A stretch of 20,105 nucleotides of DNA, from the IMG/VR virus record IMGVR_UViG_3300042350_005609, positions 1-20,105 of that record; one strand, written 5' to 3'. Below, piece after piece: positions 2-20,105 of this stretch (position 1 is the stretch's first letter; each line of letters begins with the position of its first letter). Source of the DNA: a virus. The notes beneath the pieces are model-generated. The model was given only the letters and a program-made list of their open reading frames with translations. It was not told the origin of the DNA and searched no databases. The position numbers and the translations under genes were made by a program.

Positions 2-187
2 AGTGGCACATCTGGTTCATCAGGAACATCTGGTAATTCTGGTAGTAGTGGCACATCTGGTTCATCAGGAACTTCTGGTTCATCAGGAACCTCTGGTTCA
101 TCAGGAACATCTGGTAATTCTGGTAGTAGTGGGACATCTGGTTCTTCTGGCACATCTGGTTCATCAGGAACATCTGGAACTGGATTT
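2..187 (+). repeat. Collagen-like Gly-X-Y repeat array (about 20 triplets)
   Basis: About twenty consecutive codon triplets encode GTS, GSS or GNS, ending in GTG. The DNA is a 9-nt-periodic array with a longer-range copy: the block beginning ggcacatctggttcatcagg near nt 5 recurs about 90 nt later. Proline is absent, so any triple helix would rest on Gly packing and Thr/Ser. Such arrays are prone to slippage and recombination. The array continues off the left edge. Confidence 0.85.
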
Positions 188-1354
188 ACAACAATAACAA
201 ATGCCGTGGATAACAGAGTATTGACATCAGATGGAACCACAAATTCAGCAAATGCTGAAAGTGCATTGAGTGTTTTATCAAATGTAACCGTAATGCAATC
301 TTCAATATGGGCAACTGGAAGTGTTTATACAACTGGTAGTATTTATGTTACTGGAAGTATAGATGTAAAAACCACACCAGGAACCGCATCTATTATGGGC
401 TTGGTATCAAGTGCTTCTTATACAGAGATATTTGAAATAGTTGGTAGTAACGGAACATATAATTGGAATAAACCATCATGGGCAAAAACCGTAACTGTTG
501 TTTGTATTGCCGGAGGAGGAGGTGGTGGTGGAGCAAGAACGGCATTTTCTTCTGTAAATCGTTTTTCAACTGGTGGTGCAGGTGGTGCAGGTGGTGCAAT
601 AGTCATGGGCAGATTTGATGCTTCAAATTTATCAAGTACAGTTCTTGTGACCGTTGGTAGAGGTGGAAATTCAACAACAACTTTACAAGGACAAGTTCCT
701 GGAGCAGGTGGTATTGGTGGAGATAGTACATTTGGTGAGTATATTCGTGCTCAAGGTGGTGCAGGTGGTGTTGGTAGTATTACGAGTGCAAATACTACAA
801 CTACAACTACATATACAGTTGGCAGAGGTTCAATAGGATTCATGGGATTCGGCAGTGGTTGGGGTGGTCGTGGTATCGTTTTACCGACTACTGGTATTGA
901 CGGAGAACCACCGGCATTACCAATGCGAGATGCTATAAATGCACCATTTGCACCGGCATCTGCTTATCCTTGGCCATCCGCATTAACAACCACCGGTGGA
1001 GGTGGGGGAGCTGGTATGGATTGTCTGTCTCAACCATGTGCTGCATACAGCGGTAGAGGAGCTGGTGGTAGAATCAATGGTGGTGGTAGAGGAACTGCTT
1101 ATCCAAGCTATGATGTTGCTGGTGTAGTTCCAAATAATGTTACTTATCAAAGACCAACAAACAATAATGTTCCTGCATATTACACATTAGTTGGATTAGG
1201 TGGTCGTGGTGGAGAATCCGGCGTTGATGCAGAGGATGGTGCATTATATGGCGGTGGTGGAGGTGGTGCAAGACCGCAACCTGCTCAAAATACGGATGGG
1301 TTTCCAAGTGGTAAAGGTGGAAACGGTGTTGTAGTAGTAATTTCAGAGGCATAA
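2..1354 (+). CDS. Phage tail fibre/adhesin with collagen-like repeats and glycine-rich C-terminal domain (5' partial)
   Basis: The frame is open from the first bases, so the gene starts upstream of the window; 450 residues are visible. The first 60 or so are Gly-X-Y triplets (GTS, GSS, GNS), a collagen-like shaft. A linker with DNRVLTSDGT follows, then short TGS motifs (ATGSVYTTGSIYVTGS). From about nt 420 the sequence changes to a glycine-rich domain: a WNKPSWAKTVTVV strand leads into a run of seven Gly, further Gly-rich stretches follow, and it ends GKGGNGVVVVISEA. That start and finish are typical of the Gly-rich domains at the tips of phage fibres, including polyglycine-sandwich adhesins. 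The probable role is binding a host surface receptor at the fibre tip. An internal GTG at 206 could serve as a start, but the frame is uninterrupted upstream, so I treat it as internal. The receptor cannot be predicted. Confidence 0.85.
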   Translation, partial: SGTSGSSGTSGNSGSSGTSGSSGTSGSSGTSGSSGTSGNSGSSGTSGSSGTSGSSGTSGTGFTTITNAVDNRVLTSDGTTNSANAESALSVLSNVTVMQSSIWATGSVYTTGSIYVTGSIDVKTTPGTASIMGLVSSASYTEIFEIVGSNGTYNWNKPSWAKTVTVVCIAGGGGGGGARTAFSSVNRFSTGGAGGAGGAIVMGRFDASNLSSTVLVTVGRGGNSTTTLQGQVPGAGGIGGDSTFGEYIRAQGGAGGVGSITSANTTTTTTYTVGRGSIGFMGFGSGWGGRGIVLPTTGIDGEPPALPMRDAINAPFAPASAYPWPSALTTTGGGGGAGMDCLSQPCAAYSGRGAGGRINGGGRGTAYPSYDVAGVVPNNVTYQRPTNNNVPAYYTLVGLGGRGGESGVDAEDGALYGGGGGGARPQPAQNTDGFPSGKGGNGVVVVISEA

Positions 1355-2311: not shown

Positions 2312-3457
2312 ATGATTGCTAATATATTACGAATGGCATTTGCTGCATCAGCATCATATACTATCTATACACCCCCAACTGAATTTAATCTTTTTTCATG
2401 GGGCGCAGGTACAAATGGTCAGTTGGGAAATACAAGTACCGTTAGTAGAAGTTCTCCAGTTCAAGTTGGAACTACTGCAATTTGGAAAGAAGTTCATTCA
2501 GGAGATTTTCACAGTATAGGTATTAGAAATAATGGAACCTTATGGTCTTGGGGCAATAATCCATTCGGTGAATTGGGAACTGGTAACACTACTCAAAGGA
2601 GTTCCCCAACACAAGTCGGTCTTTTAACTAATTGGAGTAAAGTAGCAACGGGAAACAATCATTCCCTTGCAATAAAAACCGATGGAACATTATGGGCTTG
2701 GGGATATAATGATAATGGCGAATTGGGTAATGGTAACAGAACAAGTATATCCAGTCCAGTTCAAATTGGATCCGATACAAATTGGGCAAAAATTGCGTGT
2801 GGTGCAAATCATTCCCTTGCAATAAAAACTAATGGAACACTTTGGGCATGGGGTGCAAGCACGGCAGGTGAAACTGGTCTTGGCATAACTGGAATTGGTG
2901 CCAGTGGAAGGCTATCACCAAGTCAAGTTGGATCATTAACTAATTGGGCTGAAATAGCTGGTGGTAATTATTTTACATTAGCAGTGAAAACAGATGGAAC
3001 ACTTTGGACATGGGGTGATAATCCAAATGGCAATTTAGGCACAGGTAACACAACAGATAGATCGAGTCCAGGTCAAGTTGGATCTTTAACTAACTGGAAA
3101 TATGTTGCAGCTTCACAGGGTCAAACTGGTAATTGTCATTCTCTTGCCGTAAAAACAGACGGAACACTTTGGGCATGGGGAGTAAATGCGGGTGCATTGG
3201 GTGATGGCACAACCACCCAAAGAAATTCTCCCGTTCAAATTGGTTCCCTAACAAATTGGGCAAATGTAGAAGCCGGAAGTTATTGTTCTATGGCGTTAAA
3301 AACTGATGGAACAATTTGGTCATGGGGGACAAACGCCAATGGAGAATTAGGTTTAGGTAACACAACAACTACATCAAGTCCTTCACAGATTGGCAGTTTA
3401 ACATCATGGTATAAAATAATGGCAGGAAGAAATCATATGCACGGATTAAGAACTTAA
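2312..3457 (+). CDS. Seven-bladed RCC1-repeat beta-propeller protein
   Basis: 381 residues made almost wholly of RCC1-type repeats. Each unit opens with LWSWG or LWAWG, continues G.LG.G.T..R.SP.QVGS.TNW, and closes with A.G..HSLA.KTDGT. The seven openings are at residues 27, 77, 127, 177, 231, 285 and 335, about 50 apart, which is what a closed seven-blade propeller needs. The first 25 residues are a short alanine-rich leader. RCC1 propellers are protein- or ligand-binding scaffolds; eukaryotic RCC1 is the exchange factor for Ran. Here the gene sits between fibre genes and a glycosyltransferase, so a virion-surface or receptor-binding role is the best inference. No catalytic function is visible. 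The strong similarity between blades suggests fairly recent internal duplication. Confidence 0.85.
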
Positions 3458-5048: not shown

Positions 5049-5792
5049 ATGAACAACAAAATTCTTAAATTGATAAAAGAAATGAACCTTGCTATATTCA
5101 ATGAAAATGAATTAGTGGACAAAGATATTGTTGTTCTGTATCCTGGCAAATTTCAACCGATGGCAATTTATCATCGTGAAGAATATGAAAGAATTTGCCG
5201 TAAATTTGATAAAGACAATGTTATTATTGTTACAAATGATATTACAGATCCAATAGAAAAACCATTAACGTATGACGAGAAGTTTGCAATAATGCGTCGT
5301 CATAATGTCAAACATATTCAAAAATCAAATACACCATTTCATGCAACAAATGTTATAGAACAATTTGATGGTGATGCTACTGTTGTAATTTATGCGGTGG
5401 ACAAGGATGATGTATCGAAATTAAAAGATTACAAAAGATTGATGAAATGGAATGGTAGTAGTCATTTGCCATACAAAGATATTCAAAATCCATATGTGTA
5501 TTACATGGTAGTGAATCATGTCATATATGATATTCCATCATTTGGCGAAATGGGTTCAAAGAGTATTTTTGCTGCTTTGGCAGACCGTTCTGCTAAATTA
5601 TCCGAATTAAAATCTCGTTTCATTTCCATATTTGGTTGGTTTGATGTAGAGATATTCAATATGGTTGTTTCAAAGTTCAATACTAAACGCGGTAAAATGA
5701 AAGAAAGTAAAAAAGATAAAAATGGTTTAAGACCATTACACATGATAACAAGAAAATTTTGGAATAAAGTTTACAATGAAATAATAAAATAA
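5049..5792 (+). CDS. Nucleotidyltransferase-fold protein with degenerate active site
   Basis: 247 residues. VVLYPGKFQPMAIYHREEYE (28-47) aligns with the first strand and HxGH loop of cytidylyl/NMN adenylyltransferases, whose usual form is GRFQPFHxGH. Here the loop is A39-I40-Y41-H42: the first His and the Gly are lost. VIIVTND (58-64) and TYDEKFAIMRRHNV (74-87) fit the family. The second nucleotide-binding motif, normally ISSTxIR, reads MGSKSIFAAL (168-177) with Phe at the Arg position. Catalysis is therefore doubtful. Related phage proteins with intact HxGH loops have, as I recall, a short helical leader like the MNNKILKLIKEMNLAIFNEN here. It starts 3 bases after the chaperone gene. It may be a structural or binding relic of an NAD-metabolism enzyme. 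Confidence 0.7.
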   Translation: MNNKILKLIKEMNLAIFNENELVDKDIVVLYPGKFQPMAIYHREEYERICRKFDKDNVIIVTNDITDPIEKPLTYDEKFAIMRRHNVKHIQKSNTPFHATNVIEQFDGDATVVIYAVDKDDVSKLKDYKRLMKWNGSSHLPYKDIQNPYVYYMVVNHVIYDIPSFGEMGSKSIFAALADRSAKLSELKSRFISIFGWFDVEIFNMVVSKFNTKRGKMKESKKDKNGLRPLHMITRKFWNKVYNEIIK

Positions 5793-7303: not shown

Positions 7304-8296
7304 ATGAATAAACAAACATTCAAATCTTTGTTAAAACCAGAAATGGGAACTAACAGCGTTGATGATGTTGATCATGCAGCCAAAATACTGGCTGATGCAT
7401 ATGAATTATCAACCATTGGAAGCAGTTGTACTTTTTATGGATCAACATTAGTTCGTGGTGATAAATCAACATTGGAAAAATTTATCAAAGCGGCATTTGA
7501 AGTAAATAAATCAACAAATTCTAAAAATGGTTACATTCTGATGGCAGTTGGTTTTTGTTCTTATTGGATAGGAACAACATTTACACCGTTACCACCAATG
7601 CCTCCTGCAATATCATCAACGGTAGGAACAAAGGTTTTGTTTCCCGGTGATCCAAAAAAATTAGAACAAAAGTTACAAGTTGCATTTGATCAATCTGAAT
7701 TTGATTTATTCGTTGAAATGTTATACACTGCATTGTGTTCATTTCATAGTACAATAGCAGGAACATTTCAGGGATTGGTTCCAGCTGCACCATCTCCTGT
7801 TCCAATAATACTACCTTGGGTTTCTATTTTATGTGTACCACCTAAATCACAAGGAACATCAGGAACATCTGGAACGAGTGGAACATCCGGCACAACTGGA
7901 ACTTCTGGAACATCTGGAACATCCGGCACAACTGGAAGAACTGGAACTTCTGGAACATCCGGCACAACTGGAACTTCTGGAACATCCGGCACAACTGGAA
8001 ATATAGACACTATAAATGCTATTAGTTGGGGAACTGATATAAACAGAACAAAATATCCATATGGTATAAACATTTCAATAACAGTTAAAACTGGAAATGG
8101 TGGAACTTTATCTTATATTTTCGATAATGAAGGATTTGTGGATGTTAATGGAAAAAAATACTTTGCTGATAAAGTCATTGGTGTTAATAAAGAATCTGTT
8201 TTAGACTGGACTAAAAAACAATTAAAAGAAAATCCATCTTGGGAAGAACTTCGTAATTTAATACAATTAGGTTGGAAACAAAATCCATATACCTAA
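7304..8296 (+). CDS. Putative virion protein with collagen-like insert
   Basis: 330 residues in three parts. Residues 1-180 form a globular domain containing TIGSSCTFYGSTLVRGDKST, MAVGFCSYWIGTTF and PSPVPIILPWVSIL, features I recall from uncharacterised phage structural proteins. Residues 184-231 are sixteen Gly-X-Y triplets (GTS, GTT, one GRT). Residues 235-330 form a second small domain with KYFADKVIGVNKESVLDW and a helical C-terminus. The collagen-like insert resembles the one in the fibre gene at 2-187, though Y is sometimes Thr here. A trimeric structural or fibre role is inferred. It starts 3 bases after the previous gene without a clear Shine-Dalgarno. Confidence 0.7.
   Translation: MNKQTFKSLLKPEMGTNSVDDVDHAAKILADAYELSTIGSSCTFYGSTLVRGDKSTLEKFIKAAFEVNKSTNSKNGYILMAVGFCSYWIGTTFTPLPPMPPAISSTVGTKVLFPGDPKKLEQKLQVAFDQSEFDLFVEMLYTALCSFHSTIAGTFQGLVPAAPSPVPIILPWVSILCVPPKSQGTSGTSGTSGTSGTTGTSGTSGTSGTTGRTGTSGTSGTTGTSGTSGTTGNIDTINAISWGTDINRTKYPYGINISITVKTGNGGTLSYIFDNEGFVDVNGKKYFADKVIGVNKESVLDWTKKQLKENPSWEELRNLIQLGWKQNPYT
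7853..7996 (+). repeat. Collagen-like GTS/GTT triplet array (16 triplets)
   Basis: Sixteen in-frame Gly-X-Y triplets within the 7304-8296 gene. At DNA level the unit ggaacatccggcacaact recurs several times with small changes. This is the second such array in the window and uses a different triplet mix (GTT rather than GSS or GNS), so it is not a simple copy of the first. Confidence 0.85.
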
Positions 8297-8324: not shown

Positions 8325-8669
8325 ATGAATAAATGTGCAGAAAATATAGTTAGAGAAATAATTCGTGAGTATCTCCGTTCAGTATTGATTGAAGGAAAAA
8401 AACCCAGTGGTGGTTTAACTGGATGGTTTAGAGAAAGATGGGTTGATATTTCTCGTAAGAAAAAAGGTGGTGGACATCCGCCATGTGGCGCCTCTGCTGG
8501 TAGTAAAGCCAGAAAGGGTGGTAAGAGGGCATATCCCAAATGTGTTCCGGCATCAAAAGCATCTTCAATGTCATCAAAACAAAAGAGAAGTGCCGTAACA
8601 CGAAAGAGAAAAAAAGGTGCTACCGGCCGTGGTAAGGCAAAAATGGTTTCAACATATACAAAGGATTAA
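8325..8669 (+). CDS. Small basic protein with putative capsid-targeting leader
   Basis: 114 residues, very rich in Lys and Arg. Residues 1-23 form an amphipathic helix (ENIVREIIREYLRSV) ending LIE-G at 21-24, which matches the T4 gp21 protease rule of cleavage after (L/I)xE and resembles the capsid-targeting leaders of T4 internal proteins. The rest contains GGLTGWFRERWVDI, PPCG, AYPKCVPASKASSM and SAVTRKRKKG, a motif series I associate with the DUF5872-like family of phage and algal-virus proteins (family name from memory). The two Cys motifs may bind metal. A DNA-associated internal head protein is a reasonable inference, but it has not been shown. No ribosome site precedes the ATG, and there is no other credible start before the conserved region. 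Confidence 0.7.
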   Translation: MNKCAENIVREIIREYLRSVLIEGKKPSGGLTGWFRERWVDISRKKKGGGHPPCGASAGSKARKGGKRAYPKCVPASKASSMSSKQKRSAVTRKRKKGATGRGKAKMVSTYTKD

Positions 8670-14124: not shown

Positions 14125-14628
14125 ATGAATGTTGAATCTTTCATAAAAAAATTAAAAGAATCAGAAGAATATCGTCAATTTGCAGAAGAAATTGCATTGG
14201 ACGAAATGAGCACCACTGCTTCTGTTCCTGGATATCAAACACCGAATGCATTTGCTCCGAGTGAAAAAGAATTTGAAAAAAGTAGTAAAGAAAATGCAGA
14301 AACTCAGGGATATACAGTTGTTCCTAAAAAATCAAAACGAAATTATGAATCCATTTACAAACAGGCAATGGGTGTAATTAACGAGGGAACATATAAAGAA
14401 TTTCGTGGTGATGAAAGCCGTAGCACGAATAGAAAAATAAATGATTCTATAAAAAATATAAACAAAACAATCTATGAAGTTGAGAGAGTCGTTGAACATG
14501 CACTCAAATTAAAAACAGAAATGAATGTTGATCAAAGAACTCTTTGGGGTGAATCCATGAGTAGATTGAGAAAAATATCAGAAAGAATAAACAGAATTAC
14601 TAAAAAAATACACGAATTAGGTGCTTAA
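14125..14628 (+). CDS. Head-region coiled-coil protein with possible gp21 site
   Basis: 167 residues. An N-terminal acidic helix (MNVESFIKKLKESEEYRQF) is followed by DEMSTTASVPGYQTPNAFAP, a Gly/Thr/Pro motif that I recall recurring in aquatic phage head proteins. MGVINEGTYKEF holds an I-N-E-G site matching the gp21 rule (L/I)xE. The C-terminal half (about 95-167) is a long helix with STNRKINDSIKNINKT and LRKISERINRITKKIHEL. KISERI also occurs near the C-terminus of the 15304 protein. The site lies immediately before the helical region and could release it. Role: candidate prohead core component, by position and composition. AAGG precedes the start. Confidence 0.65.
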   Translation: MNVESFIKKLKESEEYRQFAEEIALDEMSTTASVPGYQTPNAFAPSEKEFEKSSKENAETQGYTVVPKKSKRNYESIYKQAMGVINEGTYKEFRGDESRSTNRKINDSIKNINKTIYEVERVVEHALKLKTEMNVDQRTLWGESMSRLRKISERINRITKKIHELGA

Positions 14629-14629
14629 G

Positions 14630-15301
14630 ATGAAACAACTACTCGTAGATACTATACTTTTTGCGGCAAATCCAAAATTGATTGCAGAATCGGAAAGAAA
14701 AAACAATGGTAAAGTCATAGTTTCGGGTGTTTTACAAAGAGCTGAGGCGAAAAATCAAAATGGTAGAGTATATCCAAAAAAGATTTTGATGCGTGAAGTA
14801 AAAAAATATGCTGCAACAAATATAAAAGAAAATCGTGCTCTCGGAGAACTTGACCATCCAGATTCATCTGTGATAAATCTTCGTAATGTTTCTCACAACG
14901 TTCTTGGTGTAGATTGGAAGGGAAATGATGTTGTTGGTACTGTTGAGATATTACCAACTCCGTCCGGAAACATTTTGAAACAGCTTCTTGGTGCAGGCAT
15001 TCGTCTTGGTATATCATCAAGAGGATTGGGTTCAGTTGAAGAAATAAGTGAAGGTACAGTTGAAGTTCAAGATGATTTTGAATTGATAGGTTGGGATTTT
15101 GTTTCTAATCCATCAACACATGGTGCATTTATGTATCCAGACGGAATGCATGAGGGCATAAATGAGGGGTTAATAACAGAGGGGATTGATATGTCTACTA
15201 TTTCAAAGATTGATCCTAAAATACAACGTATTCACAATAATATAACAAACATTATTTGTGAAATTGGAAATGTTTGTGAATGTATATTTGAAGGGAGATA
15301 A
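14630..15301 (+). CDS. 21: Prohead core protease (T4 gp21-like, peptidase S77)
   Basis: 223 residues from ATG 14630, chosen over the GTG at 14621 because AGGTG lies 7 bases before it. Family motifs: NGRVYPKKIL (44-53), GELDHP with catalytic His76, GISSRGLG (127-134) with the catalytic Ser at 129/130, and DFVSNPST (156-163). The enzyme is a serine protease that assembles in the prohead core and cleaves scaffold, capsid and internal proteins, generally after (L/I)xE, then itself. INE-G (177-180) and ITE-G (182-185) lie just after the catalytic domain and are good self-cleavage candidates. The C-terminal tail (190-223) has three Cys-containing helical turns. Length is close to T4 gp21 (212). Confidence 0.93.
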   Translation: MKQLLVDTILFAANPKLIAESERKNNGKVIVSGVLQRAEAKNQNGRVYPKKILMREVKKYAATNIKENRALGELDHPDSSVINLRNVSHNVLGVDWKGNDVVGTVEILPTPSGNILKQLLGAGIRLGISSRGLGSVEEISEGTVEVQDDFELIGWDFVSNPSTHGAFMYPDGMHEGINEGLITEGIDMSTISKIDPKIQRIHNNITNIICEIGNVCECIFEGR

Positions 15302-15303
15302 AA

Positions 15304-15909
15304 ATGCCCTCATTATCACAACAACAACAAAAACTTATGGGATTGGCTCTTGCATATAAAAGAGGTAAAGTTTCTGGATCAGAAGTTAGTAAATCCGTAA
15401 GACAACTTGCAAATTCCATGTCTGAAAAAGAACTTGCAGCATTTGCAGGGACAAAACATAAAGGTCTTCCAAAAAAGGTTAGTGAATATAAAAAATCAAT
15501 AACAAGAGAAGAAATAAACAAATTGGTTTCCGATGCAGTTGAAGAAGTGATGTCTGAAAAACTCAATGTTAAAGTATTGACATCTGAACAAAAACAAAAA
15601 TACATAGAGGCAATATCACGGTATAACGAATATCGTGAGATAATTCATAGATCAAAGACACTTCCAGAAATAGTATCAGAAATAAAAAGACTTGTTGAAT
15701 TTGCTTCAAAAAATATGGTAGAAGAATCTGGTGATTGGTTTGAAGGTGTATCACACAGAAGAAACTCAAAAAGATTAAAAGAATCGGTAAATGAATTTCA
15801 AAAAATATCAGAAAGAATAGTTAAGTTACAAAGAACCCTGGAGTCTATCTACGAGAATATAGGTAAACAACTCGGATCGTTTTATGAAATAAAAAATAAG
15901 GATAAATAG
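15304..15909 (+). CDS. DUF3008-like protein with C-terminal coiled coil
   Basis: 201 residues. The first 60 match the small DUF3008-type phage/bacterial protein: MPSLSQQQQKLMGLALAYKR, then VRQLANSMSEKELAAFAG and TKHKGLPKKV. Free-standing members are about this size, so here the domain is fused to an extra 140 residues. That part is helical, with EINKLVSDAVEEVMSEKL, GDWFEGVSHRRNSKRLKE and a C-terminal FQKISERIVKLQRTLESIYE. Similar WF..V..+RN.K.LK tails are, as I recall, found in aquatic phage head modules. Function is unknown. GGGAG precedes the ATG, 3 bases after gp21, so the two are likely translated together. Confidence 0.7.
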   Translation: MPSLSQQQQKLMGLALAYKRGKVSGSEVSKSVRQLANSMSEKELAAFAGTKHKGLPKKVSEYKKSITREEINKLVSDAVEEVMSEKLNVKVLTSEQKQKYIEAISRYNEYREIIHRSKTLPEIVSEIKRLVEFASKNMVEESGDWFEGVSHRRNSKRLKESVNEFQKISERIVKLQRTLESIYENIGKQLGSFYEIKNKDK

Positions 15910-15912
15910 GTT

Positions 15913-16140
15913 ATGTCAGACAGAGTTTTTACCACATCAAAACCTGCTCATGTAAAAGTAAAGGCAGGTGGAATGAATGTAGATACGATGATTAAAGTTT
16001 TTAAGCGTAAAGTGAAAGAAGCTGGTATTCTTGAAGAATATAAAAATCGTATGGAATATATTAAACCATCAAAAAGAAAATCTGAAAAAAGAAATGCAGC
16101 CGTAAGGAGACAACGCAAACTTGATTCAGAAAACATTTAA
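15913..16140 (+). CDS. Phage-encoded bS21 (ribosomal protein S21) homologue
   Basis: 75 residues. Residues 13-69 follow the bacterial bS21 pattern: VKVKAGGMNVDTMIKVFKRK (14-33), then EAGILEEYKNRMEYIKPSKR (36-55), and a basic Arg/Lys tail. The FKR..EKAG....R...Y.KPS core of bS21 is recognisable. bS21 binds the 30S platform near the 3' end of 16S rRNA, close to the anti-Shine-Dalgarno, and affects initiation. Phage bS21 homologues are known from environmental phages, including those of pelagic bacteria. The first 12 residues are an extension. It follows the DUF3008-like gene by 3 bases with AGGTT before the ATG and precedes the ADP-ribosyltransferase by 10. Exchange into host ribosomes is inferred. 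Confidence 0.82.
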   Translation: MSDRVFTTSKPAHVKVKAGGMNVDTMIKVFKRKVKEAGILEEYKNRMEYIKPSKRKSEKRNAAVRRQRKLDSENI

Positions 16141-16150
16141 TGGAGATGAG

Positions 16151-17413
16151 ATGACCTTTGCTAGTCTTGAAAAACTAATTCGTGAAGAAACACGAAAAGT
16201 TGTTGAAAACCTGGAAAGGTCTTTTTCATTATATGAAAATGATGAAAAACCTGCAAGTGAAAATCCTGATAAGATGCTTGTTGTGAATAAAGAAAGTGGA
16301 AAATCTTATTACATAAACAAAGATAGTTTTGATCCATCTAAACATCAAACATCTTCATCTAAAACCCCCAAAAAAGAAGAAGAAGAACCCGCTGCAGATT
16401 CTACACCAACAGAAACTCCTGCGGAAGAACCAACTGCAAAAGAAAAACCTGCTGAAGAAGAACCAAAATCAGATTCAACTGAAACTCCAGAAGAAGAAAA
16501 AAAAGACGATAAGGATTCAGGTGATGAATCAAAACCAACATCCGATTCTGAAAAAAAATCAGATGATACAAAACCAGCAGAGGAAAAACCGGCAGAGGAA
16601 AAACCAAAAGAACCCAATGAAGAAAAAACGGGATTAAAAACTGTTGGTTTTTTGAATAAAGTAGACACCAGAGATTTGGATATAAAAACTGATAATTTAT
16701 ATCCAGAAACGCGTGATCAACTTTTACAATATGACTATGAAGACATAATTGATATGTATGATTTAAGTATGGGTGATGAAAAGGTAAAATTTTCAAAATT
16801 GTATAAAAAAATAGAAATGATTGCTGTTTCTAAACATAGTTTGATAAGTAAAGGTAAGTTAGATAGACAGACTGTATTGGCACTAAATCATTATTATCTA
16901 AATTCGGAAAAAATAAATAATATAATACGGTTTTCAAAACCATCTGTTTCAAAAAAAGAAATCGAACTTCAAATAAAATTGGGAAAACCAAAAGAAGGCG
17001 ATGCAAGAGAAAAGATGTACAATAGTGCAATGAATGCATTTACGATAAATGAAATGGATTATGCATTTTCAGAACAACCACAAATGCTAAAGTATAGTAT
17101 ATTGTCATATAGATTCGTTCAAAATGAAAATGTATTACAAATGTTTATAGATGCAGGTCAATGGGTTGATAAAACATTTGTAACAACATCATTGAATCCG
17201 TTGATATGTGAAGGTGGTGATAAGAAAAGAATGCCTTTATTTGAATTTTTTATTCCAGCTGGAACATCTGTATTAACTTTACCATGTCATTCCAATGATT
17301 ACTGTCACGAAACAGAAGTAACACTTCCGAGAAATTGTAGATATACAATTCAAGGTTTTAATGAAACCAGAAATATCTATAAAATTTTAGTAGAGGAAAA
17401 CTATGGCAGATGA
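16151..17413 (+). CDS. Putative ADP-ribosyltransferase, Alt-like internal head protein
   Basis: 420 residues from ATG 16151, which has a strong GGAGATGAG site; an upstream in-frame TTG at 16121 lies inside bS21 and is rejected. Residues 1-29 form an amphipathic helix (SLEKLIREETRKVVENL) ending L27-Y-E29, a gp21-type site. Residues 70-155 are a Pro/Glu/Lys/Ser linker. The C-terminal domain has the R-S-E layout of ADP-ribosyltransferases: SYRF (Arg321), KTFVTTSLNP (TTS 345-347), then IPAGTSVLTLP and HETEVTLPRN (Glu387-x-Glu389). Spacing (24 and about 40 residues) is close to ExoS-type enzymes. The fold transfers ADP-ribose from NAD+ to proteins. Leader plus catalytic domain parallels T4 Alt, injected with DNA to modify host RNA polymerase. 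The target here is unknown. Confidence 0.75.
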   Translation: MTFASLEKLIREETRKVVENLERSFSLYENDEKPASENPDKMLVVNKESGKSYYINKDSFDPSKHQTSSSKTPKKEEEEPAADSTPTETPAEEPTAKEKPAEEEPKSDSTETPEEEKKDDKDSGDESKPTSDSEKKSDDTKPAEEKPAEEKPKEPNEEKTGLKTVGFLNKVDTRDLDIKTDNLYPETRDQLLQYDYEDIIDMYDLSMGDEKVKFSKLYKKIEMIAVSKHSLISKGKLDRQTVLALNHYYLNSEKINNIIRFSKPSVSKKEIELQIKLGKPKEGDAREKMYNSAMNAFTINEMDYAFSEQPQMLKYSILSYRFVQNENVLQMFIDAGQWVDKTFVTTSLNPLICEGGDKKRMPLFEFFIPAGTSVLTLPCHSNDYCHETEVTLPRNCRYTIQGFNETRNIYKILVEENYGR

Positions 17414-17620: not shown

Positions 17621-17637
17621 AATAGTTGGAGATTTTT

Positions 17638-18702
17638 ATGAATGATTTATTGAAAGAAGCTATTGCAGATGCAAAAGCCGTCAAGGAAGTAGCATTAGCA
17701 AACGCTAAACTCGCACTGGAAGAGGCATTCACTCCGCGTTTGCAGTCTATGCTTTCTCAAAAGTTGGCAGAGGAGGCAGAAGCCGAGGAGCCAGTTGAGG
17801 AAGGTGAGGGTGAAGAAGAAGCACCCGTAGAAGAATACGGATTCTATAGCGAAGGTGAAGATGAAGAACCTGCTATGGAAGAAGGTGAAGAAGAAGAAGC
17901 ACCGGTTGAAGAAGGTGAAGATGAAGAAGCACCTATGGAAGAAGGTGAAGATGAAGAAGCACCTATGGAAGAAGGTGAAGATGAAGAGCAAACAATGGAT
18001 GAAGAATTGATGGAAATTATTCGTCAATTAGAAGAAGACATTGATTCATCTGAAATCGGAAAAGGTGATAATGCAAAACCATCAAAGGTTGCTTCAGATG
18101 ACAGCACAGAAGACAAATCTGAAAAACTCGTTCAATTAGTTGAAGAAGAAGATGAAGATTCAGAAGAAGTTGCTGAAATCAAAGAAATTCTTCGTGCTCT
18201 TCGCGAGGAAGAAGGTGAAGAAGAAGCGGCTCCCGTTGAAGAAGGTGAAGATGAGGAAGAAGTAGACATAAAAGAAGTTCTTCGTGCTCTCCGTGAGGAA
18301 GAAGACGAAGAAAAGGTTGAAGAAGCAGAAGAAAGTGAAAAAGAAGTTGCAGAAGCAAAACTTCGTGAAGCTTATGCAGTTATTTCATTCTTGCGTTCTA
18401 AAATCAATGAAGTCAATCTTTTGAACTCAAAATTGCTTTTCTCTAACAAGTTGTTCCGCAAACACTCACTTAGCGAAAAACAAAAAATGACTGTTATCGA
18501 AAACTTCGATCGTGCATCAAGTCTTCGTGAAGTCAAATTAGTTTTTGCAACACTTAGCGAATCGTTTAGAACAACAAAAGTTAAACCTATCAAGGAATCT
18601 TTTGCTTCTAAACCAACAGCAAGTACACGCCCATCAAAGCCAATTTTGAATGAAGGTGATGATATGGCAAATCGTTTACGTAAATTAGCAGGTTTGAAAT
18701 AA
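17638..18702 (+). CDS. 22: Prohead scaffold core protein (T4 gp22-like)
   Basis: 354 residues from ATG 17638 with GGAG 6 bases upstream; the in-frame TTG at 17626 lies ahead of that site and is rejected. An N-terminal helix (NDLLKEAIADAKAVKEVALA) leads into a very acidic Glu-rich region (about 43-250), including a perfect 10-residue tandem repeat (EEGEDEEAPM) and a duplicated IKE(I/V)LRALREEE. The C-terminal region is typical of gp22: YAVISFLRSKINEVNLLNSK, KLFRKHSLSEKQKMTVIENF and SLREVKLVFATLSESF. gp22 forms the prohead core around which gp23 assembles and is later degraded by gp21. L337-N-E339-G is a candidate cleavage site just before the C-terminal basic tail. Acidic expansion makes it longer than T4 gp22 (269). 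Confidence 0.92.
   Translation: MNDLLKEAIADAKAVKEVALANAKLALEEAFTPRLQSMLSQKLAEEAEAEEPVEEGEGEEEAPVEEYGFYSEGEDEEPAMEEGEEEEAPVEEGEDEEAPMEEGEDEEAPMEEGEDEEQTMDEELMEIIRQLEEDIDSSEIGKGDNAKPSKVASDDSTEDKSEKLVQLVEEEDEDSEEVAEIKEILRALREEEGEEEAAPVEEGEDEEEVDIKEVLRALREEEDEEKVEEAEESEKEVAEAKLREAYAVISFLRSKINEVNLLNSKLLFSNKLFRKHSLSEKQKMTVIENFDRASSLREVKLVFATLSESFRTTKVKPIKESFASKPTASTRPSKPILNEGDDMANRLRKLAGLK
17881..17990 (+). repeat. 30-bp tandem repeat in the scaffold gene
   Basis: The 30-nt unit starting gaaggtgaagatgaagaagc occurs identically at 17911-17940 and 17941-17970, with a partial copy at 17971-17990 and an imperfect one at 17881-17910. It is in frame, encoding 10-residue acidic units, so copy-number change would keep the frame open. 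Confidence 0.9.
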
Positions 18703-18720: not shown

Positions 18721-20105
18721 ATGAGTATACAATCTTTATTGAATGCCTCTGGGAATCCCCACAAGGCACTTATCAAAGAAAACAAGCAAATTGTCAATAA
18801 ATGGCAAAAAACTGGTCTTCTTGATAATTTGAAAAACGAGTATGAGAAGAACTCTATCGCAATACTTCTCGAAAATCAAGCAAAACAACTTATTGAAGAA
18901 TCAAACAGAACAGGTACAGCAGCTGGTTCAGAAGAATGGGCTGGTGTTGCACTTCCATTGGTTCGCCGTATTTTCTCTGAAATTGCTGCGAAAGATTTCG
19001 TTTCTGTTCAACCAATGAACTTGCCTTCTGGTCTTGTATTCTATCTAGACTTCAAATATGGTTCAGCACAACCTGGATTCACAACCGGTTCCGGTAGAAC
19101 ATCACAGGCAGATTCAGTATTCGGTATCACCGGTGCTGGTGCTAAAGATGCTGATCCTTCAGGCGGTCTTTATGGTGCAGGTCGTTTCGGTTATTCTATT
19201 AACGATGCCGTAACAAGTTTAACATCTGCATCTACATTGTCAGGTACAAACTTTGTAACTGGTTCAGTAACACACAATACACCATCATTATTCCAACATG
19301 ATACAGAGTTCCAAAATTCTTACTCTGCATCACTTGCCGGTGGTAATATATTTACTGTTACAGTTTCATCTGCATCATTTACAGATGCTGATTATGAAGG
19401 TGTTCGTGCATTTAAGATTACTGGTTCAACTATTAAGGGTTATTTCCCTCAATATACAACCACAAATTCAACAAACACACAAGTTACTTTCGTAGTTTCA
19501 GCATCCGCAGTTCCAACTGCAGCTGATGTTTACTATGAAAAGCAACCTATTGCTTCAAATCGTGGTGATTTTGAAGAAGGTGCTGCTGGTGCAGCTCTTG
19601 ACATTCCTGAAATCAATCTTGAATTGCGTTCAGAATCCATCGTTGCTAAAACACGTAAGTTGAAGGCAGTATGGACACCTGAATTTGCACAAGATTTGAA
19701 TGCATACCACTCAATCGATGCAGAAGCTGAATTGACATCAATGTTGTCTGAATACATTTCACAAGAAATTGATTTGGAAATTCTTGATATGTTGATTAAG
19801 AATGCACAAACAACAGAAAGATGGTCTGCACGTATTGGTCGCACTTATGATGGTGCTACTGGTAGATTTGATGACTATACAAATGCTCAGGCATCTGCTG
19901 CTGCGTTTAATCAACAAACTTGGTTCCAAACACTTGGCACAAAGATTCAAAAAGTATCAAACGCAATTCATCAGAAAACACTTCGTGGTGGTGCAAACTT
20001 CCTCGTATGTTCTCCACAAGTTGCTACAATACTTGAATCAATGCCTGGCTATGCAGTTGATGGTGAAGGTATGAAATTCGCAATGGGTGTTCAAAAAGTT
20101 GGTCA
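18721..20105 (+). CDS. 23: Major capsid protein (T4 gp23-like), 3' partial
   Basis: 461 complete codons are visible with no stop; the gene runs off the right edge. AAGGA lies 8 bases before the ATG. The N-terminal prosequence (1-59) is helical and charged and ends KQLIE at 55-59, a gp21-type site in the position of the T4 maturation cleavage (after residue 65). Then follow LPLVRRIFSEIAA and FVSVQPMNLPSGLVFYLDFK, the gp23 hallmark (T4: ..VRRAIP..IAFDICGVQPM). An insertion-like Ser/Thr-rich stretch (about 160-275) is followed by conserved KTRKLKAVWTPEFAQDLNAY and AEAELTSMLSEYISQEIDLE. It forms the hexameric capsid lattice around the gp22 core. Position after gp22 matches T4 order. Confidence 0.95.
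   Translation, partial: MSIQSLLNASGNPHKALIKENKQIVNKWQKTGLLDNLKNEYEKNSIAILLENQAKQLIEESNRTGTAAGSEEWAGVALPLVRRIFSEIAAKDFVSVQPMNLPSGLVFYLDFKYGSAQPGFTTGSGRTSQADSVFGITGAGAKDADPSGGLYGAGRFGYSINDAVTSLTSASTLSGTNFVTGSVTHNTPSLFQHDTEFQNSYSASLAGGNIFTVTVSSASFTDADYEGVRAFKITGSTIKGYFPQYTTTNSTNTQVTFVVSASAVPTAADVYYEKQPIASNRGDFEEGAAGAALDIPEINLELRSESIVAKTRKLKAVWTPEFAQDLNAYHSIDAEAELTSMLSEYISQEIDLEILDMLIKNAQTTERWSARIGRTYDGATGRFDDYTNAQASAAAFNQQTWFQTLGTKIQKVSNAIHQKTLRGGANFLVCSPQVATILESMPGYAVDGEGMKFAMGVQKVG

What the first reader, a model, noticed from the sequence alone, without database searches (positions are those of the whole stretch)
16151..17413. Alt-like ADP-ribosyltransferase with a capsid-targeting leader, encoded in the head gene cluster
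Seen: an R321 / T345-T-S347 / E387-x-E389 signature with family-like spacing, a long acidic Pro/Glu linker, and an N-terminal amphipathic helix ending L-Y-E. Known: ADP-ribosyltransferases use an Arg, an STS and an ExE motif; T4 Alt is carried in the head and injected with DNA. Inferred: this protein is packaged via its leader, trimmed by gp21, and released into the host to modify proteins or RNA. The unusual points are the gene's place between gp21 and gp22 and the length of the charged linker.
Basis: partly seen in the sequence, partly recalled or inferred. Interest (0 to 1): 0.82.

Follow-up and report, generated by a model that had tools for sequence, protein, structure and literature searches.

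The report
Phage head-packaged ADP-ribosyltransferase with cleavable tag
A T4-like environmental phage carries, among its head-building genes, an enzyme of the ADP-ribosyltransferase kind (it would attach a piece of NAD to host molecules) behind a short N-terminal tag that looks made to load it into the virus head and be cut off there; the idea is known from phage T4, but this family, its layout and its fixed gene position appear to be undescribed.

Summary
ORF 16151-17413 encodes 420 aa with Y320-R321, T345-T-S347, E387-x-E389, a leader ending L27-Y-E29 and an acidic, nearly hydrophobe-free linker. Two AlphaFold models match only ADP-ribosyltransferases (VIP2, C3, CDTa, iota) among the listed top 50 hits; 30-37%-identical relatives pass Pfam PF03496 and match Alt-like PHROG 802. 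About 80 contigs carry the gene, in all 22 examined loci in one order: gp17-gp20-...-gp21-DUF3008-bS21-ART-gp22-gp23. The (L/I)-x-E leader end is kept in every sequence with a complete N-terminus, behind two different leaders (29 or 10 residues), x varying; gp21, gp22 and gp23 of these phages carry the same signature. The 10-residue leader (MIKLKxxLxE) has T4 IPIII geometry and recurs on 8 unrelated protein families (p=3e-8). Ten relatives lack the gene at the same site, so it is accessory. Caveats: R321 became Lys in at least three lineages; no virion proteomics or activity data exist. Best reading: a packaged, gp21-trimmed, injected mono-ADP-ribosyltransferase working like T4 Alt without being its ortholog (lacks Alt's large N-terminal part, different locus). 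New variant of a known kind.

The parts
16151..17413 (+). ART gene, 420 aa: leader, cleavage motif, beta module, disordered linker, ADP-ribosyltransferase domain
16151..16237 (+). leader, residues 1-29; helix 3-28; predicted capsid-targeting propeptide
   Evidence: AF2 helix; leader conserved; IIREE-type leader shared with unrelated families
16229..16237 (+). L27-Y28-E29, predicted gp21 cleavage motif (L/I)-x-E
   Evidence: present in all sequences with complete leader, x varies; motif rule from PMC9026906
16262..16348 (+). conserved beta-hairpin module, residues 38-66 (DKMLVVNKESGKSYYINKxSFDPxKH), directly after the cleavage motif
   Evidence: pLDDT 75-86, strands 41-46, 52-56, 65-67; kept to Mel-JY01; new hits of its own search checked were all ART genes or fragments of them; deleted in some members
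16358..16654 (+). disordered acidic E/P/K/T linker, residues 70-168
16658..17410 (+). ADP-ribosyltransferase domain, residues 170-420
17111..17113 (+). R321 (AGA), candidate NAD-binding Arg on first core strand; Lys (AAA) in some relatives
17183..17191 (+). T345-T346-S347, STS-type motif
17309..17317 (+). E387-T388-E389, ExE motif (form seen in Arg-specific ARTs)
14621..15301 (+). gp21-type prohead protease, predicted to trim the leader; own motif I18-A-E20 (counted from ATG 14630)
   Evidence: PF03420 2.1e-29, phrog_207 4.8e-53; motif conserved
15304..15909 (+). DUF3008-domain protein
   Evidence: PF11450 2e-14
15913..16140 (+). ribosomal protein bS21 homolog, same strand, ends 10 nt before the ART start
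   Evidence: PF01165 5.2e-13
17626..18702 (+). gp22-like scaffold (conserved start MNDLLK at 17638) with L-A-E45
   Evidence: position and conservation; no profile match
18721..20105 (+). gp23 major capsid protein (cut by window end); I58-x-E60 motif
   Evidence: PF07068 5e-52; I-x-E60 in 21/21 loci
8325..8669 (+). small basic protein with leader of the same type (MNKCAENIVREIIREYLRSVLIE|GKK)

Best explanation
The protein is a virion-packaged mono-ADP-ribosyltransferase of the R-S-E (Alt/VIP2) clade. It is made late with the head proteins. Its N-terminal helix binds the gp22-type prohead core and takes it inside. The gp21-type protease cuts after L-Y-E29. The mature enzyme (beta module, flexible acidic tether, ART domain) stays in the head, enters the host with the DNA, and transfers ADP-ribose from NAD+ to host macromolecules at the start of infection, probably to arginines given the ExE motif. 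Shown computationally: ART fold and motifs, conserved leader and cleavage motif, conserved place in the head cluster, accessory status. Inferred: packaging, cleavage, injection, activity, target.
For: Fold: AF2 pLDDT 81, pTM 0.81 for residues 157-420; all 50 listed PDB matches are ARTs, best 3.3e-8; the full-length model gives VIP2 first, 4.3e-8; phage VIP2-like, MuF-fused and Alt-type ARTs in the viral library. Sequence: relatives 30-37% identical pass PF03496 (L078 46.6 bits, cut-off 23.4) and match phrog_802 Alt-like (2.5e-12); phiAS5 Alt hit by tblastn 4e-4; the profile aligns R/STS/ExE with Vis toxin (E 0.0023). Purifying selection, dN/dS 0.06-0.21 on the domain. Leader: L27 and E29 kept across a leader swap (29 vs 10 residues) with conserved sequence after the site; gp23, gp22 and gp21 controls; DUF3008 and orf107 proteins mostly or wholly lack the motif; shared leaders on unrelated proteins; 10-residue form matches T4 IPIII, processing at residues 8 and 10. 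Context: same gene order in 22/22 loci; 10 relatives have bS21 directly followed by gp22, as expected of a dispensable effector like Alt.
Against: R321 is Lys in at least three lineages; Arg-to-Lys at this position is known to cripple other ARTs (own knowledge), so some members may be weak. The window protein itself matches no curated profile. No virion mass spectrometry, no activity, no target. The Arg-Glu distance was not measured.
Confidence: 0.72

Rival explanations
1. The ART is a prohead-core component that acts inside the producing cell or on phage head proteins during assembly (or protects packaging proteins from host defence) and is not an injected effector.
For: Encoded and probably expressed with late head genes; Iyer et al. 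2022 raise this alternative for ARTs beside packaging genes.
Against: Absent at the same site in 10 close relatives with otherwise intact clusters and not found in complete Flavobacterium phage immuto, so not needed for assembly; T4 precedent is injection.
Confidence: 0.15
2. The protein keeps the ART fold but is a weak or inactive enzyme (NAD-binding or decoy) in part of the family, including relatives nearest the window.
For: R321K in at least three lineages inside the window's subfamily; TTS becomes TTT in L064.
Against: Only Arg or Lys ever occurs; E387, E389, T346 and W338 stay fixed; dN/dS stays near 0.1 between Lys members; the window has Arg.
Confidence: 0.08
3. The leader is a core-binding helix that is never cut; L-x-E conservation reflects helix packing only.
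For: The motif is short and no cleavage data exist for this lineage.
Against: Middle residue varies freely (Y, S, H, L, I, T, N, A); the motif persists when the rest of the leader is replaced; same signature in gp21, gp22, gp23; AF2 shows the helix ending there with pLDDT <50 at 25-33.
Confidence: 0.05

Closest known systems
T4 Alt (gpAlt) and Alt-like ARTs of T4-like phages (phrog_802; phiAS5 ADM79888)
   Same: R-S-ExE ART domain (tblastn 4e-4, blastp 1e-8 to relative L078); N-terminal propeptide ending LxE (phiAS5: MSIKDMLLTE|A); in T4 packaged, trimmed by gp21, injected (PMC9026906)
   Different: 420 aa against 647 in phiAS5, no large Alt N-terminal region; head operon instead of beside dda and DNA ligase; novel beta module and long acidic linker
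VIP2 / C3 / iota-type ART toxins (fold relatives only)
   Same: Fold and R, STS, E motifs; ExE as in VIP2 and iota rather than QxE
   Different: No toxin translocation parts seen; sits in a phage head operon with a propeptide
T4 internal proteins IPI-III with capsid-targeting sequence
   Same: Short N-terminal tag with (L/I)xE; subfamily-2 leader is 10 aa with L8 and E10 like IPIII
   Different: Cargo is an ART; subfamily-1 leader is a longer 29-residue helix
Phage ARTs encoded near head genes or fused to MuF/portal (Iyer et al. 2022, PMC9503650)
   Same: Contextual inference of head packaging; about 44% of phage ARTs
   Different: Stand-alone ART with its own cleavable leader; family not matched by curated models in the window's subfamily

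Membership tests
R-S-E clade ADP-ribosyltransferase (PF03496 / Alt-VIP2) | ART fold | tested here: met
R-S-E clade ADP-ribosyltransferase (PF03496 / Alt-VIP2) | Arg on first core strand after an aromatic residue | tested here: met
   Y320-R321 in strand 317-322; Lys in 5 of 47 distinct relatives
R-S-E clade ADP-ribosyltransferase (PF03496 / Alt-VIP2) | S/T-T-S motif on a later strand | tested here: met
R-S-E clade ADP-ribosyltransferase (PF03496 / Alt-VIP2) | ExE at the start of a core strand | tested here: met
   E389 opens strand 389-392; 42/42
R-S-E clade ADP-ribosyltransferase (PF03496 / Alt-VIP2) | Curated profile match | tested here: inconclusive
   Window protein: none; several relatives above cut-off
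R-S-E clade ADP-ribosyltransferase (PF03496 / Alt-VIP2) | NAD-dependent ADP-ribosyl transfer | not testable with these tools
   needs enzyme assay
T4 Alt orthologs | Alt domain layout with large N-terminal region | tested here: not met
   420 aa with about 100 disordered; phiAS5 Alt 647 aa
T4 Alt orthologs | alt locus beside DNA ligase/dda | tested here: not met
T4 Alt orthologs | N-terminal gp21 motif | tested here: met
   L27-Y-E29
Capsid-targeting-sequence cargo (T4 IP type) | Short N-terminal propeptide ending (L/I)xE | tested here: met
Capsid-targeting-sequence cargo (T4 IP type) | Tag shared by unrelated proteins of the phage | tested here: met
   8 of 11 unrelated MIKL families with E10 vs 47/812; IIREE-type leader in 12 families
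Capsid-targeting-sequence cargo (T4 IP type) | Packaged and processed in virion | not testable with these tools
   needs virion mass spectrometry
MuF-fused / polyvalent ART | MuF, portal or other fused domain | tested here: not met
   full-length model

The most novel reading that the evidence does not exclude
The two leader types on this ART family (MIKLKxxLxE and the longer LxxIIREExxKxxxxxLxE helix) are interchangeable head-loading tags used by a large set of unrelated proteins in this wide group of T4-like phages, so that the whole injected set of each phage could be read from its genome by its N-termini; the ART is one cargo, and DarT/HYD1-like ARTs with the same tag are others.
Probability: 0.45. 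Interest if true: 0.72.

Novelty: new variant of a known kind. Interest (0 to 1): 0.52.

Why it matters
It extends head-packaged ADP-ribosylation from T4 to uncultured T4-like phages related to Flavobacterium and Microcystis-associated isolates, with a gene found at one fixed site and missing from close relatives (a natural knock-out). The leader comparison gives a readable rule (tag, then L/I-x-E) that predicts other injected proteins and can be tested by virion proteomics on a culturable relative (Microcystis phage Mel-JY01).

Tried and rejected
Single-sequence Pfam, PHROGs and NCBIfam on the window protein: nothing meaningful. phmmer and the first profile against PDB sequences: no ART; the deeper alignment found Vis. 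PF03496 on the window's own record: no match. Relatives in bacterial genomes (GTDB): none. The beta module elsewhere: the new hits checked were all ART genes or fragments of them. A paper on Mel-JY01: none found. Chen et al. 2022 bS21 phages (PMC9723584) also have bS21 in the head cluster but on the opposite strand, and the term ADP-ribosyl does not occur in it, so not the same arrangement. Considered and rejected: Alt ortholog (locus and layout differ); MuF or polyvalent fusion (no such domain); chance motif (conservation and fold exclude it). A C-terminal gp21 site (L413-V-E415) was considered, but V414-E415 lie in the last core strand and subfamily 2 keeps VE without L-x-E, so it is probably structural.

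Full report
What is there. ORF 16151-17413 (+) encodes 420 aa. ATG 16151 follows GGAG by 5 nt and lies 10 nt after the bS21 stop. The window is a T4-like head cluster: gp17, gp20, three small genes, gp21, a DUF3008-domain protein, bS21, the ART, gp22-like scaffold, gp23.

Family. A first search found 44 IMG/VR contigs; alignment searches extended this to two main subfamilies plus Mel-JY01 and, with further hits to the beta module, to about 80 contigs. Subfamily 1 (the window's) is 47-100% identical to it; subfamily 2 is 30-37% identical. The only close match in 50,697 phage records is WWT39312 of Microcystis phage Mel-JY01, annotated hypothetical. No relative was found in GTDB genomes.

Fold and catalytic motifs. 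AF2 on residues 157-420 gave pLDDT 81, pTM 0.81; the listed top 50 PDB matches are all ADP-ribosyltransferases. A second, full-length model with 23 sequences gave VIP2 first. Strand order fits an ART: R321 in strand 317-322, TTS at the end of strand 344-347, E389 opening strand 389-392. Several subfamily-2 members pass the PF03496 cut-off and match Alt-like phrog_802, L078 matches phiAS5 Alt directly, and the family profile aligns R, STS and ExE with the Vis ART. The domain is under purifying selection (dN/dS 0.06-0.21).

The Arg. R321 is Lys in L003-L007 and L009 and in L064. On a 47-sequence tree at least three changes are needed. Codons are AAA for Lys and AGA or CGT/CGC for Arg. Nothing but Arg or Lys occurs, and the other motifs stay, so a positive charge seems required. 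This weakens, but does not refute, catalysis in those members; the window has Arg.

Leader. In subfamily 1 a helical leader of 29 (30 in two) residues ends in L-x-E in all sequences; x is Y, S, H, L, I, T, N or A. In subfamily 2 the leader is MIKLKxILxE, 10 residues, cut motif L8-x-E10; Mel-JY01 has I8-L-E10; a GTG-started third branch has V/M-IKLKDILLE. Sequence right after the motif is conserved across subfamilies: the leader was replaced while the cut motif stayed. T4 gp21 cuts after L/I-x-E, and T4 IPIII needs ten residues with processing at 8 and 10 (PMC9026906). In the same loci gp23 has I-x-E60 (x = E, D or S) in 21/21, gp21 has (I/L)-x-E20 in nearly all, gp22 L-(A/S)-E45 in nearly all, while DUF3008 proteins (with two exceptions) and orf107 proteins (with two exceptions at position 6) lack it.

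Shared tags. In five other contigs plus Mel-JY01, ORFs starting MIKL have E at position 10 in 14 of 17, against 47 of 812 others; by family without the ART, 8 of 11 (Fisher p 3e-8). The cargo is diverse: a Tox-ART-HYD1-like protein (E 0.011), a hydrolase-like, a beta-flower and a DUF7178 protein. The second type, LxxIIREExxKxxxxxLxE, occurs at the N-terminus of 12 unrelated families (79 of 1652 ORFs against 5 of 6724 internal Met windows), among them the gp22-like scaffold, the ART and the window gene at 8325. These counts include orthologs and should be read as enrichment, not as exact probabilities.

Position and dispensability. All 22 loci examined have the ART between bS21 and gp22. A search by gp21 found 10 contigs with bS21 followed directly by gp22. 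The family was not found in complete Flavobacterium phage immuto, though that search had no positive control of its own. So the gene is an accessory cassette at a fixed site, as expected for an effector and not for an assembly protein.

Mechanism. Most likely: loaded through the leader into the gp22 core, cut by gp21, retained, injected with DNA, and used to ADP-ribosylate host molecules early. ExE suggests arginine as acceptor (general ART knowledge). The acidic linker (49-102 residues in ten members) is best read as a flexible tether; the beta module after the cut is of unknown role.

Known or new. Head-packaged ARTs are known: T4 Alt, and by context 44% of phage ARTs (PMC9503650). New here are the family, its layout, its site, and the shared-tag evidence. 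It works like Alt but fails two ortholog tests (layout, locus).

Noticed in passing
L155:276-926, 923-1105, 2056-2718 (Mel-JY01 60276-62718); L132:5249-5827: Related ORFs with MIKLK-type leaders followed by SD[RI]V[WY]H[LF]TT..SA..I; the L132 copy weakly matches Tox-ART-HYD1 (E 0.011). Possibly a second packaged ART family.
   Followed up: partly
L138:2031-2675; L138:10403-11278; L146:7186-8130; L162:17594-19191: Unrelated proteins with the same MIKLKxxLxE N-terminus; candidate injected cargo.
   Followed up: partly
L277:5972, L285:7119, L292:6465, L295:8557 and 10367, L297:7232: Distant T4-like contigs carry different proteins, several between gp21 and gp22, with IIREE-type leaders; may be a general head-loading tag.
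   Followed up: partly
window 15913-16140: bS21 homolog in the head cluster on the same strand, next to the ART in all 22 loci; the bS21 phages of PMC9723584 have it on the opposite strand.
   Followed up: partly
L003-L007, L009, L064: Repeated Arg/Lys exchange at the presumed NAD-binding Arg, with AGA/AAA codons, under purifying selection.
   Followed up: partly
L226:3190-4026: Third ART branch lacking Cys at the positions of C379 and C385, otherwise near invariant; starts from GTG.
   Followed up: no
window 5049-5792: Cytidylyltransferase/NMNAT-like protein (PF01467, E 0.0099) upstream of the terminase, conserved in Mel-JY01; immuto has a gene annotated NadR in the same region. A link to NAD supply is possible.
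   Followed up: no
window 2312-3457: Protein made almost wholly of RCC1 repeats (PF00415, 7 repeats) in the tail-fibre region.
   Followed up: no
window 2-1354 and 7304-8296: Gly-Thr-Ser-rich collagen-like repeats (PF01391 9.7e-8 in the second).
   Followed up: no
L046: Mel-JY01 is recorded on Microcystis, yet its portal's next relatives in the phage collection are Flavobacterium phage immuto and Rhodothermus phage RM378; the true host of this lineage may be Bacteroidota.
   Followed up: no
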